Shown here piece by piece: positions 1,690 to 38,735 of a stretch of DNA of 44,285 nt. Every line of letters starts with the position of its first letter. The stretch's first letter is position 1. The notes under the pieces were generated by a model. That model was not told the origin of the DNA, did not search any database, and saw nothing but the letters and a program-made list of their open reading frames with translations. The position numbers were made by a program, and so were the translations under genes. Source of the DNA: a virus; the IMG/VR virus record IMGVR_UViG_3300031256_000003, positions 1 to 44,285 of that record; one strand, given 5' to 3'.

Positions 1690-1743
1690 TTAGCACCTCA
1701 AAATTTATCTAGCTAAACCACTACAAACTTGACGGTAACCACG

Positions 1744-3012
1744 ATGCAAGTCGAGTCCATTCCAGTTGCGACCTTGGTCCCATACGCCCGCAATGCGCGA
1801 ACCCACTCCGCCGCGCAGGTGGCGCAGATCGCCGCAAGCATCCGCGAGTTCGGCTTTTGCAACCCGGTGTTGATCGACGAGCATGGTGGCATTATCGCGG
1901 GACACGGCCGCGTGCTGGCTGCGCGCAAGCTAGACCTCGACGCGGTTCCCTGCATCCGCCTTTCGCACCTCAGCGAGATTCAGCGCCGCGCCTACGCGCT
2001 TGCGGACAACAGACTTGCTGAGAATGCAGGATGGGATCTTGAGCAGCTAGGATTGGAGCTGTCTGGGCTGCGCGTCGACGGCTTTGATCTCGACTTGCTG
2101 GGATTCGATGAGGCGGAACTGGACGGACTGCTTGACGGAGACGTGCATAGCAGCGAAGGGTCAAGCGAAGATACAGAGCCGCAGATTGATCACGCCGATG
2201 AATTGCGAAAGAAGTGGGGCGTTGAAGCTGGTCAACTCTGGAAGCTTGGAGAACACCATCTGCTGTGTGGGGATTCGACCATGGCAGATGACGTGGCGCT
2301 GGCGTTGAGCGGAGACACCCCACATTTGATGGTTACAGATCCTCCATATGGGGTGGGATATAACGCAGACTGGCGGAACCATGCCTTTCGATCAGATGGC
2401 TCTCCCATCGCAGGTAGAGCCATCGGAAAAGTCGAGAATGACAACCAGGCGGATTGGCGAGAGGCATGGATTCTGTTTCCTGGAGACGTGGCCTATGTTT
2501 GGCATGCTCCGGGACCTCTGCAAGTTGCAGTGCTTCAAAGTTTGATAGCATGCGACTTTGAGGCTAGGAACCATATTATCTGGGCTAAAAACACGCTTGT
2601 AATAGGTCGCGGACATTACCACCATCAGCACGAGCCGTGTTGGTATGCCGTCAGAAAAGGGGCGACGGCGCACTGGAATGGGGATAGAAAACAAACAACA
2701 TTGTGGGAAATTGACAAGCCGCAAAAGAATGAAACGAGCCATAGCACACAAAAGCCACTTGAATGCATGGCGCGTCCAATCCGAAACAATAGTGCTCCTG
2801 GAGATTCCGTCTATGATCCATTCTCAGGCTCTGGCACGACGATCATTGCCGGAGAAAATCTAGGACGAAAGGTCCGCGCCATCGAAATATCCACGGCCTA
2901 TGTAGCCGTCGCCCTGCAGAGATGGGCCGATCACACCGGTAAAACGCCTAAGCTAGCCTCTCGATCCGCGCATTCAAGCCAACCGAAGAAAACCTCAAAG
3001 GCGAGCGTTTAA
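1744..3012 (+). CDS. ParB-domain / DNA adenine-or-cytosine (N6/N4) methyltransferase fusion
   Basis: 422 residues. The N-terminal part (about 1-90) is a ParB/Srx-type domain with LIDEHGGIIAGHGR (GHGR at 53-56). After an acidic linker comes an amino-methyltransferase with motif IV DPPYGVGY (about 199) and motif I DPFSGSGTT (about 358-366). Catalytic motif before the SAM-binding motif is the beta-class order. Such fusions are frequent in phages and are thought to protect virion DNA from host restriction. The ATG at 1744 follows a weak GGTAA; a TTG at 1729 is the alternative. No target-recognition specificity can be read. It lies immediately upstream of the small terminase. Confidence 0.9.
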   Translation: MQVESIPVATLVPYARNARTHSAAQVAQIAASIREFGFCNPVLIDEHGGIIAGHGRVLAARKLDLDAVPCIRLSHLSEIQRRAYALADNRLAENAGWDLEQLGLELSGLRVDGFDLDLLGFDEAELDGLLDGDVHSSEGSSEDTEPQIDHADELRKKWGVEAGQLWKLGEHHLLCGDSTMADDVALALSGDTPHLMVTDPPYGVGYNADWRNHAFRSDGSPIAGRAIGKVENDNQADWREAWILFPGDVAYVWHAPGPLQVAVLQSLIACDFEARNHIIWAKNTLVIGRGHYHHQHEPCWYAVRKGATAHWNGDRKQTTLWEIDKPQKNETSHSTQKPLECMARPIRNNSAPGDSVYDPFSGSGTTIIAGENLGRKVRAIEISTAYVAVALQRWADHTGKTPKLASRSAHSSQPKKTSKASV

Positions 3013-34270: not shown

Positions 34271-34338
34271 TGCCCTAGCTTGCTGCCGCTATGCGATACG
34301 GAGCTCAAGTTGCGATCTTGATCAGCGAGCATCGGGCA
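34271..34338 (-). other. Conserved leader hairpin element, copy 2
   Basis: Arms TGCCCTAGCTTGCTG (34271-34285) and CAGCGAGCATCGGGCA (34323-34338) pair over about 14 bp with a bulge. The element lies in the 100-base leader of recT, about 25 bases before its start, and shares the flank ACCCAACAAC with copy 3. Confidence 0.72.
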
Positions 34339-34663: not shown

Positions 34664-34773
34664 TGCCCGATGCTCGCTAACCAAGCTTCGATTTATCCGA
34701 ACGCTCGGCGGCTGCATTACCGCTCACGAGCCTCGCATTCGGTCCACTACGCGATGCCAACAAGCATCGGGCA
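34664..34773 (-). other. Conserved leader hairpin element, copy 3
   Basis: Arms TGCCCGATGCTCG (34664-34676) and CAAGCATCGGGCA (34761-34773) enclose an 84-base loop. This copy has the perfect TGCCCGATGC / GCATCGGGCA pairing without the bulge. It sits in the 143-base leader of the gene at 34348-34644. Confidence 0.7.
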
Positions 34774-35289: not shown

Positions 35290-36204
35290 TCACAGCGCCC
35301 ATCGGGGCAGGCTGATGGACTCGATTTCATCCGGATATCCAGGCCAGTATCCAGTGGCGTATGCCTCGGCAAATCGCTGGAATACCCGCTCGCACAAATG
35401 CCAGCCGCGGGCGATCGCCTCTGGATCAAACCCCATCACGCGCACGCCAAACGGACGCTCAGACTCGACGACGATATGGCGGAATGCTCGTGGTGACCCA
35501 TTGGCCTTGGCCGCCCACTCATAGAGAGCCGCCTGGATGTGGTACTGGTAGGTCCCGCACTTGCGCGCATAGGCGTCATAGCCGGCCGAATCGGTGGTCT
35601 TGATATCGCCGGTCAGATCCATCTTGTTCGACCAGATATCAGCCCTGGTCTTGACTGGGCAGCATGTCTCTTCGTGCCGCGCGAGAACCGTCACTTCGGG
35701 CGAGAAGTCTTGGAGCATGATCGAGGCGATTGGATGGCTGAGAACCGCGTCACGCATCGCCATCGCTTGTGCATGGGTGTCATGATCTATTATGTACCGC
35801 CCGGAATCCTCGACCATTTCCATAAGCGCCGTCATCTGCTCATCTAGGAACTTGCCGAGCGCTTTCCCATCGAAATGGGGCACGTCGAGCTCCAGCGCCT
35901 CGGCCAGGCTACGGACATAGAGGTCTTTCCCGGCGTTCGAGTTTTTCGCTGCGCCACTGGTCAGCACGATGTAGCGCTTGGCCTCTGGCTCGAGGAGCAT
36001 CTCATGGAGGAGCGTCCCGCGTCGCTTCGCCTTGCTCTCCTTGTCAATCTTCTCGCGGACATGCAGCATGGATTCCGCTAGCGCGATCTTGATTGCCGAT
36101 GAGCTGGCCGCCGGGATTTCAAGATAGGTCTGGAATGGGACCCCCAGCATGATGCTCGGGAAGGCGAAGGCATCCGTCTGCTCGATGAGGGCTGCTTCGC
36201 TCAT
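35290..36204 (-). CDS. RecE/exonuclease VIII-like PD-(D/E)XK nuclease
   Basis: 304 residues from the ATG at 36204, whose ATGA overlaps the upstream stop; the longer frame to 36399 is an overlap artefact. It carries the RecB-type nuclease motifs in order: RRGTLLHEML with H67, E170, D189 in RADIW, D200-x-K202 in TGDIKTTD, and QAALY (about 224-228). This is the exonuclease partner of the RecT-like protein and would resect double-stranded DNA ends to give a 3' overhang for annealing. Confidence 0.88.
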   Translation of the reverse strand: MSEAALIEQTDAFAFPSIMLGVPFQTYLEIPAASSSAIKIALAESMLHVREKIDKESKAKRRGTLLHEMLLEPEAKRYIVLTSGAAKNSNAGKDLYVRSLAEALELDVPHFDGKALGKFLDEQMTALMEMVEDSGRYIIDHDTHAQAMAMRDAVLSHPIASIMLQDFSPEVTVLARHEETCCPVKTRADIWSNKMDLTGDIKTTDSAGYDAYARKCGTYQYHIQAALYEWAAKANGSPRAFRHIVVESERPFGVRVMGFDPEAIARGWHLCERVFQRFAEAYATGYWPGYPDEIESISLPRWAL

Positions 36205-36486: not shown

Positions 36487-36771
36487 TGGCTAATCGCACG
36501 GCTCGGTCGGTTCTCACCTACCCTACGGCTTATCGCACCCAATCAACGGTTCTCACTTGACCCTTGGCTCATCGCACAGCCTGAGCGGTTCTCACTTTAT
36601 GAACGGCTCATCGCATAGCGCTCTCGGTTCTCACCCCTGGTTCGTCTCATCGCACATCTGGGACGGTTCTCACCCGTCGATCGGCTCATCGCACTTCAGT
36701 CACGGTTCTCATAGTTACAACGGCTCATCGCACCCGCGTTACGGTTCTCATGCCTCATGCGGCTCGTCACT
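36487..36771 (-). repeat. TIGR-like array 1: seven 39-nt units with two conserved motifs and two variable spacers
   Basis: Read on the minus strand, two motifs alternate. The 12-nt motif TGCGATGAGCCG (usually preceded by G) occurs eight times, at plus coordinates 36487, 36526, 36565, 36604, 36643, 36682, 36721 and 36760. GTGAGAACCG occurs seven times, at 36508, 36547, 36586, 36625, 36664, 36703 and 36742. The period is exactly 39 nt. Variable segments are always 8 nt on one side and 9 nt on the other, and all seven pairs differ. The end copies are degenerate, and the copy at 36760 overlaps the stop codon of the Nop-like gene. No terminator is seen in the 37 bases beyond the distal end. Confidence 0.93.
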
Positions 36772-37840
36772 ATGCGGCCTTCTCGTCCTCGAACAGGACG
36801 TATCTATAGGGCGGCGTGATGTAATGCGCATGTCCCTTGATCGCAGTCGCAAACGGATTCGGCGGCTTTTGCCCATTCTCGACCTCAAACCATAACTCAT
36901 GCAGATGGCTCAAGAAGAGCTTCACCGTCGCCCGCCTGGCCATCGCATCAATGTGCCCATCTGGAAGCTTGCCCATCGCCAATACGTCCTTTTGCGCGTG
37001 GTTTGGGAACTTCTGTAGCTTTGCCTCCGCCAGCTTGGCCCGGCCCCCGGTGTCGTTTCGTACCACCTCCGCAGCCTTGCGCTGCCGGTAGAACTTCGCG
37101 TAGAACGCATCTTCGCGACCACCTAGCTTCACCATCTGGTCGCCGATCTTCCAGCACATCGTCTTCAGTGGCCGATTGAACGGTATTCTCGCCAAGCTTT
37201 TGATCGCGCTGGTCTTTGTCAGCGCCTTGGTTTCACCGGTCTTGAAATCGGTTGTTGCGTCGCGTAGCACGGTCTCCGGGTCACGTCCGAGAATGATGCT
37301 GAGCTGGCGCACCCGGAATTCCACGTCTCCAGTGCGCTCCTTCCAAAGCTCCTTCAGGGTGTCTGTCGACTCCCACCGCTGGCTCGGATCGAGGCCGGCA
37401 AAGCGCCACCAATGGCCGACCGTTGGAGGAACGGGTCGATAACCCAGATGCGCAAGTATGCCGGCGGACAAGACCGGGCCGATCCCAGGTACGGCCGAGA
37501 ACCACGGCCACATGGGATGAGTTTGCGCGAACGCCTGGAGGAAGCCAGCGGAGTTGGCCTCCATGGTCTCCGCCTGGCGAAGCATGTAGTCGACATATTC
37601 CGTGCTGGCTCCGCTATCGCTTCCGCGTTGCACAGCGCCGCCCTGATTGGCGAGCCGCTTGCGCATTTCCTGCATGGTGTAGTAGAGGTCCACAAGCACA
37701 CGTGCCTCGGCTGCAGTACATTTGCCGGGAGGTCCTTCGAGTGATGCTCCGGCCGCGCGCGCCTGTTCGCCAGCTCGGATTGCCGCGATCGCGTCCTTTG
37801 AAAGCTTGATGATTGGCGTTAAGCTAATAGGGTCTTTCAT
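36770..37840 (-). CDS. Tas-like protein: Nop / IS110 C-terminal (Tnp_20)-like RNA-guided DNA-binding protein
   Basis: 356 residues from the ATG at 37840; the frame opens earlier but that part overlaps another gene. Two helices (about 44-66 and 80-108) lead into the core FSAVPGIGPVLSAGILAHLGY...HWWRFAGLDPSQRW (about 114-156). This is the helix-hairpin-helix 'PGiG...A..l.a..g......F....Gl.P' pattern shared by IS110/IS116/IS902 transposase C-termini and Nop domains. The C-terminal half is helical and basic, ending with HIDAMARRATVKLFLSHLHELW. No DEDD catalytic domain, HNH or RuvC motif is present, so it looks like a stand-alone binding protein. It lies between two TIGR-like arrays, which is the decisive context. 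The ribosome-binding site is poor. Confidence 0.85.
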   Translation of the reverse strand: MKDPISLTPIIKLSKDAIAAIRAGEQARAAGASLEGPPGKCTAAEARVLVDLYYTMQEMRKRLANQGGAVQRGSDSGASTEYVDYMLRQAETMEANSAGFLQAFAQTHPMWPWFSAVPGIGPVLSAGILAHLGYRPVPPTVGHWWRFAGLDPSQRWESTDTLKELWKERTGDVEFRVRQLSIILGRDPETVLRDATTDFKTGETKALTKTSAIKSLARIPFNRPLKTMCWKIGDQMVKLGGREDAFYAKFYRQRKAAEVVRNDTGGRAKLAEAKLQKFPNHAQKDVLAMGKLPDGHIDAMARRATVKLFLSHLHELWFEVENGQKPPNPFATAIKGHAHYITPPYRYVLFEDEKAA

Positions 37841-37850
37841 GGTTCTGCTT

Positions 37851-37870
37851 CGCCCCGGGCTACCGGGGCG
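37851..37870 (-). other. Hairpin before the Tas-like gene
   Basis: Perfect 8-bp stem CGCCCCGG / CCGGGGCG around a 4-base loop, ten bases upstream of the Tas-like ATG on the minus strand. It may restrict ribosome access or separate the transcript segments. Read on the plus strand it is followed by CCTCTTTT, a weak terminator-like tail with no rightward gene to serve. Confidence 0.6.
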
Positions 37871-37890: not shown

Positions 37891-38175
37891 TCAGCCAACT
37901 GCCTTGGCCGGGATCTCTTCCTGCTGCACTGCTTCCAGTTGCGGCGATCCTATCGGCATCATAATGGCCCGGTTCTTGGCTATGTCCGGGGCCTGGATCA
38001 TGAGTTTCTTGAAGCCCACGTTCATCGTGGCCCAAGCCCGCGCCTCCTTTAGGAAGCCCTGCACCTGCCGGTTTTTCTTCTCAATGTCCAAATCATCGCG
38101 CTCATCGATCTGCTCGACCTTATCGATGCAATAATCGACAACGCCATCCACACTGCGCTCAATCTTCTTGCTCAT
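37891..38175 (-). CDS. Small helical protein between array 2 and the Tas-like gene
   Basis: 94 residues, with AGAGGA nine bases upstream of the ATG. It starts MSKKIERSVDGVVDYCIDKVEQIDERDDLDIEKKNRQVQGFLKEARAWATMN, is charged and helical, then IAKNRAIMMPIGSPQLEA. I do not recognise it. Because it lies between array 2 and the Tas-like gene in one transcript, it may be an accessory factor of that system or an ordinary early gene. Confidence 0.66.
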   Translation of the reverse strand: MSKKIERSVDGVVDYCIDKVEQIDERDDLDIEKKNRQVQGFLKEARAWATMNVGFKKLMIQAPDIAKNRAIMMPIGSPQLEAVQQEEIPAKAVG

Positions 38176-38216: not shown

Positions 38217-38735
38217 TGAAAATTCGCACGATTGACGCGATTCTCACCTAGTTCAAGGCTCGTCGCATGATCCAATTTGTTCTCACAGTAGCTTCGGCTC
38301 ATCGCACCCCGAGGTCGGTTCTCACAACCCTCACGGCTCGTCGCATTCGCCTGGCGGTTCTCACCGGCTGAACGGCTCATCGCGCACCCACTACGGCTCT
38401 CGCTGGAAGTTCGGCTAGTCTCATTCCGTGCTCGGTTCTCGCGCCACTGATGGATCATCGCACCTTTCGAACAGTTCTCTCTCGCCATTCGGCTCATCGC
38501 ACTTGCGCTTCGGTTCTCACCACTGGGTCGGCTCATCGCACCCACGTTACGGTTCTCACGGCAGCTTCGGCTCATCGCACCATGCGAACGGTTCTCACTC
38601 TCCAGACGGCTCATCGCACCGACTTTACGATTCCCACTATTTTTACGGCTCATCGCATACCGTGCTCGGTTCTCATGCCGCTGATGGCTCATCGCATCGC
38701 GGGGACGGTTCTCACGGGCTTTTCGGCTCATCTAC
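38217..38735 (-). repeat. TIGR-like array 2: thirteen 39-nt units with two conserved motifs and two variable spacers
   Basis: This array has the same two motifs, period and spacer lengths as array 1. On the minus strand TGCGATGAGCCG-type copies start (plus coordinates) at 38256, 38295 and so on every 39 nt to 38724, with a badly degenerate one at 38217. GTGAGAACCG-type copies lie at 38238 to 38706. Copies from 38490 to 38715 are nearly perfect, whereas those from 38217 to 38481 carry several substitutions, so the array decays toward its 3' end as transcribed. The last copy (38724-38735) overlaps the stop of the upstream microprotein. Because 39 is 13 codons, an apparent 172-codon reading frame with a 13-residue repeat runs through it; I regard that as a by-product. 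Confidence 0.93.

What the first reader, a model, noticed from the sequence alone, without database searches (positions are those of the whole stretch)
36770..37840. IS110-like C-terminal domain without its catalytic DEDD domain
The core is IS110/Tnp_20-like, so automated annotation would call it a transposase. But the RuvC-like DEDD N-terminus is missing, there are no insertion-element ends, and no HNH or RuvC motif is visible. A binding-only effector would act by occupancy (repression, replication block or protection of self sites) rather than cleavage.
Basis: partly seen in the sequence, partly recalled or inferred. Interest (0 to 1): 0.8.

Follow-up and report, generated by a model that had tools for sequence, protein, structure and literature searches.

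The report
Nuclease-free RNA-guided phage protein with arrays
This phage carries a TIGR-TasA system, a recently described kind of RNA-guided DNA-binding protein that lacks any cutting domain, flanked by 20 paired-guide RNA units; it is a real, new member of a known family, and its natural targets remain unknown.

Summary
The 356-aa protein at 36770-37840 (- strand) matches the RNA-binding body of IS110 transposases, TasR and TasH, but begins where their nuclease domains end. It passes the curated NCBIfam model for TIGR-Tas proteins (155.5 bits, cutoff 100) and fails the IS110 model (20.1, cutoff 140). A confident AlphaFold model (pLDDT 91) has no beta-strand of three or more residues, so there is no room for a DEDD, RuvC or HNH domain. 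The IS110 catalytic serine position is not serine either. Two TIGR arrays flank the gene on its own strand, 13 units upstream and 7 downstream. Each unit is a 12-nt edge repeat, 9-nt spacer, 9-nt loop repeat and 9-nt spacer. All 63 aligned viral relatives match the Tas model, and nearly all surveyed loci carry such arrays, usually with 36-nt units; the 39-nt unit is shared clearly only with the closest relative. I found no target in this phage, in 0.86 Mb of related viral DNA, or beyond chance for one duplicated guide in IMG/VR. New member of a known kind; modest interest.

The parts
36770..37840 (-). tasA: 356-aa Nop-domain (Tas) protein without nuclease domain; coiled coil about 43-106, Nop/Tnp-like C-terminal domain about 111-348
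   Evidence: NF052498.1 155.5 bits; AF2 pLDDT 91.1, pTM 0.88, all helical; VIA-align Z 17-18 to TasH/TasR, 12.4 to IS621
36487..36769 (-). Downstream TIGR array: 7 units of 39 nt; begins with a truncated edge repeat at the base after the tasA stop codon
   Evidence: Repeat parsing
38224..38735 (-). Upstream TIGR array: 13 units of 39 nt; begins with a truncated edge repeat after a T8 run and ends with a truncated edge repeat (TGCGA) and a terminator-like site
   Evidence: lag-39 autocorrelation 0.588 against 0.269 (sd 0.019) in shuffles
38424..38462 (-). [quoted passage not shown] a diverged near-copy of unit 2 (14 of 16 guide bases identical), a sign of internal duplication
38224..38240 (-). 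Terminator-like hairpin overlapping the 3' truncated edge repeat of the upstream array
   Evidence: the number of such sites in the region is near the shuffled expectation, so weak
37891..38175 (-). 94-aa ORF between upstream array and tasA; no Pfam family, no relative in the fetched loci
35290..36204 (-). PDDEXK exonuclease (DUF3799) downstream of the array; same-strand early/recombination genes
   Evidence: PF12684 60.5 bits; a relative also lies near tasA in L001
32961..34247 (-). RecT single-strand annealing protein
   Evidence: PF03837 134.9 bits

Best explanation
The locus is a phage-borne TIGR-TasA system. Shown: a nuclease-free Nop-domain Tas protein and two same-strand dual-repeat arrays encoding 20 paired guides. 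Inferred from Faure et al. 2025: the arrays are transcribed on the tasA strand and trimmed in the edge repeat into tigRNAs of about 39 nt. A TasA dimer holds one tigRNA through the UG...CC(G) boxes of edge and loop repeat, and the two spacers pair with opposite strands of an adjoining target of about 16-18 bp. The complex opens and sharply bends the DNA without cutting it. Inferred, weaker: the effect is occupancy, i.e. blocking transcription or replication of competing mobile elements or of host loci. The targets are probably outside this phage.
For: NCBIfam Tas model met by P0001 and by all 63 aligned relatives. Fold matches TasH/TasR above IS110 recombinases (Z 17-18 vs about 12.5). No strand of 3 or more residues in the model. 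IS110 serine position not conserved as serine. Arrays: repeat columns 1.1-2.0 bits, inner spacer columns 0.0-0.22 bits (random mean 0.11). Box D 'UG' starts and box C 'CC(G/A)' ends both repeats when read on the tasA strand; a conserved C-G pair sits inside those boxes in the edge repeat and the loop is A-rich (AGAA), as in PMC12045711. Arrays near tasA in nearly all surveyed relatives: 58 of 75 loci by a strict parser, most others by autocorrelation. Several relatives have 35-nt units, so the arrays are not protein-coding repeats. Shared units between related viruses stay nearly unchanged where genomes differ by 10-17%, although alignment by spacer similarity biases this.
Against: No expression, processing or DNA-binding data. 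No natural target found. The 39-nt unit differs from the experimentally measured 36-nt tigRNAs. An edge repeat of 12-13 nt sits at or just beyond the published 8-12 nt range, depending on how the repeats are cut.
Confidence: 0.78

Rival explanations
1. A decayed IS110 transposase that lost its DEDD domain and is now a pseudogene or remnant.
For: Sub-threshold Pfam and NCBIfam IS110 matches; PHROG calls it transposase.
Against: Intact ORF; a family of 63 aligned relatives with the same nuclease-free architecture and strong conservation; better match to TasH/TasR than to IS621; dual-repeat arrays beside it and its relatives.
Confidence: 0.02
2. TasA needs a partner in trans, such as the neighbouring PDDEXK exonuclease/RecT pair or a host nuclease, so the targeted DNA is finally cut or recombined.
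For: DUF3799 exonuclease and RecT are encoded downstream on the same strand; an exo relative lies beside tasA in L001 and RecT relatives in 9 fetched loci; RecT and YqaJ are the commonest named neighbours, 3 each of 117 proteins.
Against: Most TasA loci show no such neighbour; early recombination genes are common in phages, and enrichment was not tested against a background.
Confidence: 0.1
3. TasA acts on the phage's own DNA, e.g. as an aid to integration or as a regulator or protector of self sites.
For: Faure et al. 2025 note that the roughly 180-degree DNA bend resembles integrase-assisting bends.
Against: None of the 20 guide pairs matches this phage with fewer than 2 mismatches in 16; the single 2-mismatch hit (40261) is unremarkable. 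No excess of matches in related viral loci over shuffled pairs.
Confidence: 0.07
4. The arrays are coding tandem repeats (39 nt = 13 codons) and have nothing to do with guide RNA.
For: A 172-aa ORF spans the upstream array on the - strand.
Against: Inner spacer columns are random at all codon positions; relatives have 35-nt units that break the frame.
Confidence: 0.01

Closest known systems
TIGR-TasA (Faure et al. 2025, PMC12045711)
   Same: Solo Nop-domain protein without nuclease; flanking dual-repeat arrays with truncated first and last edge repeats; UG/CC box motifs; two short spacers per unit; phage location.
   Different: 39-nt rather than 36-nt unit, from an edge repeat 3 nt longer; 356 aa with an insert of about 60 aa after 'GLDP...W' that many relatives lack.
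TIGR-TasR (PDB 9mty) and TIGR-TasH (PDB 9w04 and others)
   Same: Same Nop body (Z 17-18) and same guide architecture.
   Different: TasR has an N-terminal RuvC and TasH an N-terminal HNH; this protein has neither.
IS110 family recombinases (IS621, ISCro4)
   Same: Coiled coil plus Tnp/Nop-like domain (Z about 12.5).
   Different: No DEDD RuvC domain, no catalytic serine (Arg155 in the S241 column), arrays in place of a single bridge RNA.
Type IV and V-M CRISPR effectors
   Same: Works like: RNA-guided interference without cleavage (analogy drawn by Faure et al. 2025).
   Different: Unrelated protein and guide; two short split spacers instead of one long spacer.

Membership tests
TIGR-Tas | Tas/Nop-domain protein by curated profile | tested here: met
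   NF052498.1 155.5 bits, cutoff 100
TIGR-Tas | Nop fold matching solved Tas structures | tested here: met
   TasH Z 18.1 over 235 residues at 4.0 A; TasR Z 17.0 over 194 residues at 3.1 A
TIGR-Tas | Adjacent array of alternating edge and loop repeats with two spacers per unit | tested here: met
   13 + 7 units
TIGR-Tas | UG and CC(A) box motifs shared by edge and loop repeats | tested here: met
   TGCGATGAGCC(G/A) and TGAGAACCG on the tasA strand; third box base is mostly G rather than A
TIGR-Tas | Array processed into Tas-bound tigRNAs | not testable with these tools
   Needs small-RNA sequencing
TasA subtype | No RuvC or HNH nuclease domain | tested here: met
   All-helical model with no strand of 3+ residues; aligned region excludes the nuclease domains of TasR/TasH/IS621; no nuclease-domain hit in Pfam
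TasA subtype | Guide-dependent DNA binding without cleavage | not testable with these tools
   Needs biochemistry
IS110 transposase | N-terminal DEDD RuvC domain | tested here: not met
   Domain absent: all-helical model, and the protein starts where the IS621 RuvC domain ends
IS110 transposase | Catalytic serine (S241 in IS621) | tested here: not met
   Arg155 by ungapped extension of the profile alignment; family column mostly Glu/Lys. Ser153 lies two residues away, but that column is mostly Thr
TasParB operon variant | ParB-like gene in operon with tasA | tested here: not met
   Neighbours are a 94-aa unknown and a PDDEXK exonuclease; the ParB-like/methylase ORF seen by eye at 1729-3012 is about 34 kb away

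The most novel reading that the evidence does not exclude
TasA opens DNA at two guide-chosen strands so that the phage's own RecT and exonuclease act there, making the locus an RNA-guided recombination system rather than a blocker.
Probability: 0.04. Interest if true: 0.85.

Novelty: new member of a known kind. Interest (0 to 1): 0.35.

Why it matters
TasA is the commonest Tas form, and its biological role is unknown. This locus gives a compact phage example with 20 guides and a close relative with a larger array, and it shows that units can be 39 nt. It also shows that current annotation labels nuclease-free TasA proteins as endonucleases or transposases.

Tried and rejected
Self-targets with 9+9 and 8+8 guide pairs, both spacer orders, gaps 0-2 for 8+8: nothing better than 2 mismatches in 16. 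Cross-targets of 1,702 adjacent spacer pairs against 0.86 Mb of related viral loci: 4 exact hits in the expected order, shuffled controls 1-10. IMG/VR scan for the duplicated unit 2/8 guide: 3 hits in the expected order and 13 in the other, not beyond chance by my estimate. A target signature from 'spacers end in purine' was dropped: in relatives that base belongs to the repeat. No relatives in annotated phage genomes by tblastn. Of the GTDB genomes scanned, only one Acidobacteriaceae isolate had a relative. No Rfam match. PADLOC: none for the Tas proteins. Host genome unavailable: the window is itself a 44,285-base virus record. The first AF2 model (5 sequences, pLDDT 74) was superseded.

Full report
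Check of the observation. The ORF at 36770-37840 on the - strand is intact, 356 aa. Its resemblance to IS110 is real but below the curated cutoffs (PF02371 16.4 of 21.3 bits; NF033542 20.1 of 140 bits). The curated NCBIfam model for TIGR-Tas proteins matches at 155.5 bits, cutoff 100, over residues 46-317. The best hit among solved structures by sequence is TasR, 9mty, and with a 63-member profile TasR, TasH, then IS621 and ISCro4.

Is the nuclease really missing? An AlphaFold2 model built on 63 sequences is confident (pLDDT 91.1, pTM 0.88) and helical, with no beta-strand of three or more residues. RNase H-fold (DEDD, RuvC) and HNH domains need strands. Structural alignment pairs residues 34-348 with TasH 63-309, 43-347 with TasR 112-322 and 40-346 with IS621 125-320, that is, with these proteins minus their N-terminal nuclease domains. 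In IS621 the composite active site also needs Ser241 of the Tnp domain (PMC11208158). Extending the profile alignment by two residues, that column is Arg155 here and mostly Glu or Lys in the family. 'No insertion-element ends' is, from general knowledge of the family, not informative for IS110.

Surroundings. Read on the tasA strand, two arrays flank the gene. The upstream array (38735-38224) has 13 units and the downstream array (36769-36487) has 7, the latter starting at the base after the tasA stop codon. Each 39-nt unit is TGCGATGAGCCG, a 9-nt spacer, TGAGAACCG, and a 9-nt spacer. Repeat columns carry 1.1-2.0 bits. Inner spacer columns carry 0.0-0.22 bits, the level of random columns. The ninth base is nearly always a purine because it belongs to the repeat, as relatives with 10-nt repeats and 8-nt spacers show. 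Box D (UG) and box C (CC plus G/A) bound both repeats. The A-rich one fits the published loop repeat, and the one with an extra C-G pair inside the boxes fits the edge repeat (PMC12045711). Both arrays begin with a truncated edge repeat, and the upstream one ends with a truncated edge repeat and a terminator-like site, as described for TIGR arrays.

Relatives. A five-member profile found 227 related stretches in IMG/VR; 80 were kept. One lies in an isolate genome, Acidobacteriaceae bacterium KBS 96. All 63 aligned members match the Tas model, and their short N-terminal parts leave little room for a nuclease domain in most (start codons were chosen by rule). Most have 36-nt units, a few 35. The 39-nt unit is shared clearly with the closest relative L001 (57-58% identity, spacing mode 39) and possibly with L030. 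Frame-breaking 35-nt units exclude a coding-repeat explanation. Related viruses share runs of units with very few spacer changes (for example 0 mismatches in 5 spacers for L052/L074 at about 17% genome divergence). This suggests guide sequences under constraint or recently exchanged; the alignment favours similar spacers, so it is only suggestive. In the window, unit 8 of the upstream array is a diverged copy of unit 2, so arrays can grow by internal duplication.

Mechanism. From the published TasR work (PMC12045711) the steps are tigRNA trimming in the edge repeat, a Tas dimer holding one tigRNA, pairing of the two spacers with opposite strands, and strong DNA bending. All of this is inferred here. 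What follows binding is unknown for any TasA. Occupancy without cleavage is the most economical reading because the protein has no nuclease and the tasA neighbourhood holds no obvious partner beyond ordinary phage recombination genes (exonuclease DUF3799 and RecT). Self-targeting found no support, and no cross-target excess was seen in related viruses. Power is limited, because an exact 16-base match is expected often by chance in large databases and the host is unknown.

Novelty. This is TIGR-TasA, already described as a class. The new points are modest: a phage example with both arrays, a 39-nt unit lineage, evidence for array growth by duplication, and a conserved HxH...HxH histidine set (all four in 43 of 63 relatives) that TasR and TasH lack as pairs and that I cannot explain.

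Noticed in passing
P0001 residues 312, 314, 337, 339 (window 36770-37840, - strand): Two HxH pairs; all four histidines present in 43 of 63 relatives, while TasR and TasH keep at most one per pair. Possible metal site or RNA contact; function unknown.
   Followed up: partly
window 37851-37870: 8-bp GC-rich hairpin directly before the tasA start codon; on the - strand it could mask the ribosome-binding region, on the + strand it resembles a terminator.
   Followed up: no
L052/L074, L051/L057, L056/L058 arrays: Related viruses share only parts of their arrays, yet shared units are nearly identical: fast turnover of units with conserved guides.
   Followed up: partly
L088 (KB906767.1, Acidobacteriaceae bacterium KBS 96): A TasA gene with a 36-nt array in an isolate genome, a possible laboratory entry point for finding natural targets.
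   Followed up: no
window 1729-3012: By eye, a ParB-like N-terminus followed by a DNA methylase-like region, far from tasA.
   Followed up: no
window 34317-34338 and 34664-34685: 22-nt inverted repeat, 91% complementary, 325 nt apart, around a 98-aa unknown ORF.
   Followed up: no
window 36770-37840 (NCBIfam NF052498.1): The model is named 'RNA-guided endonuclease' but also captures nuclease-free TasA proteins, so annotation by it overstates function.
   Followed up: yes
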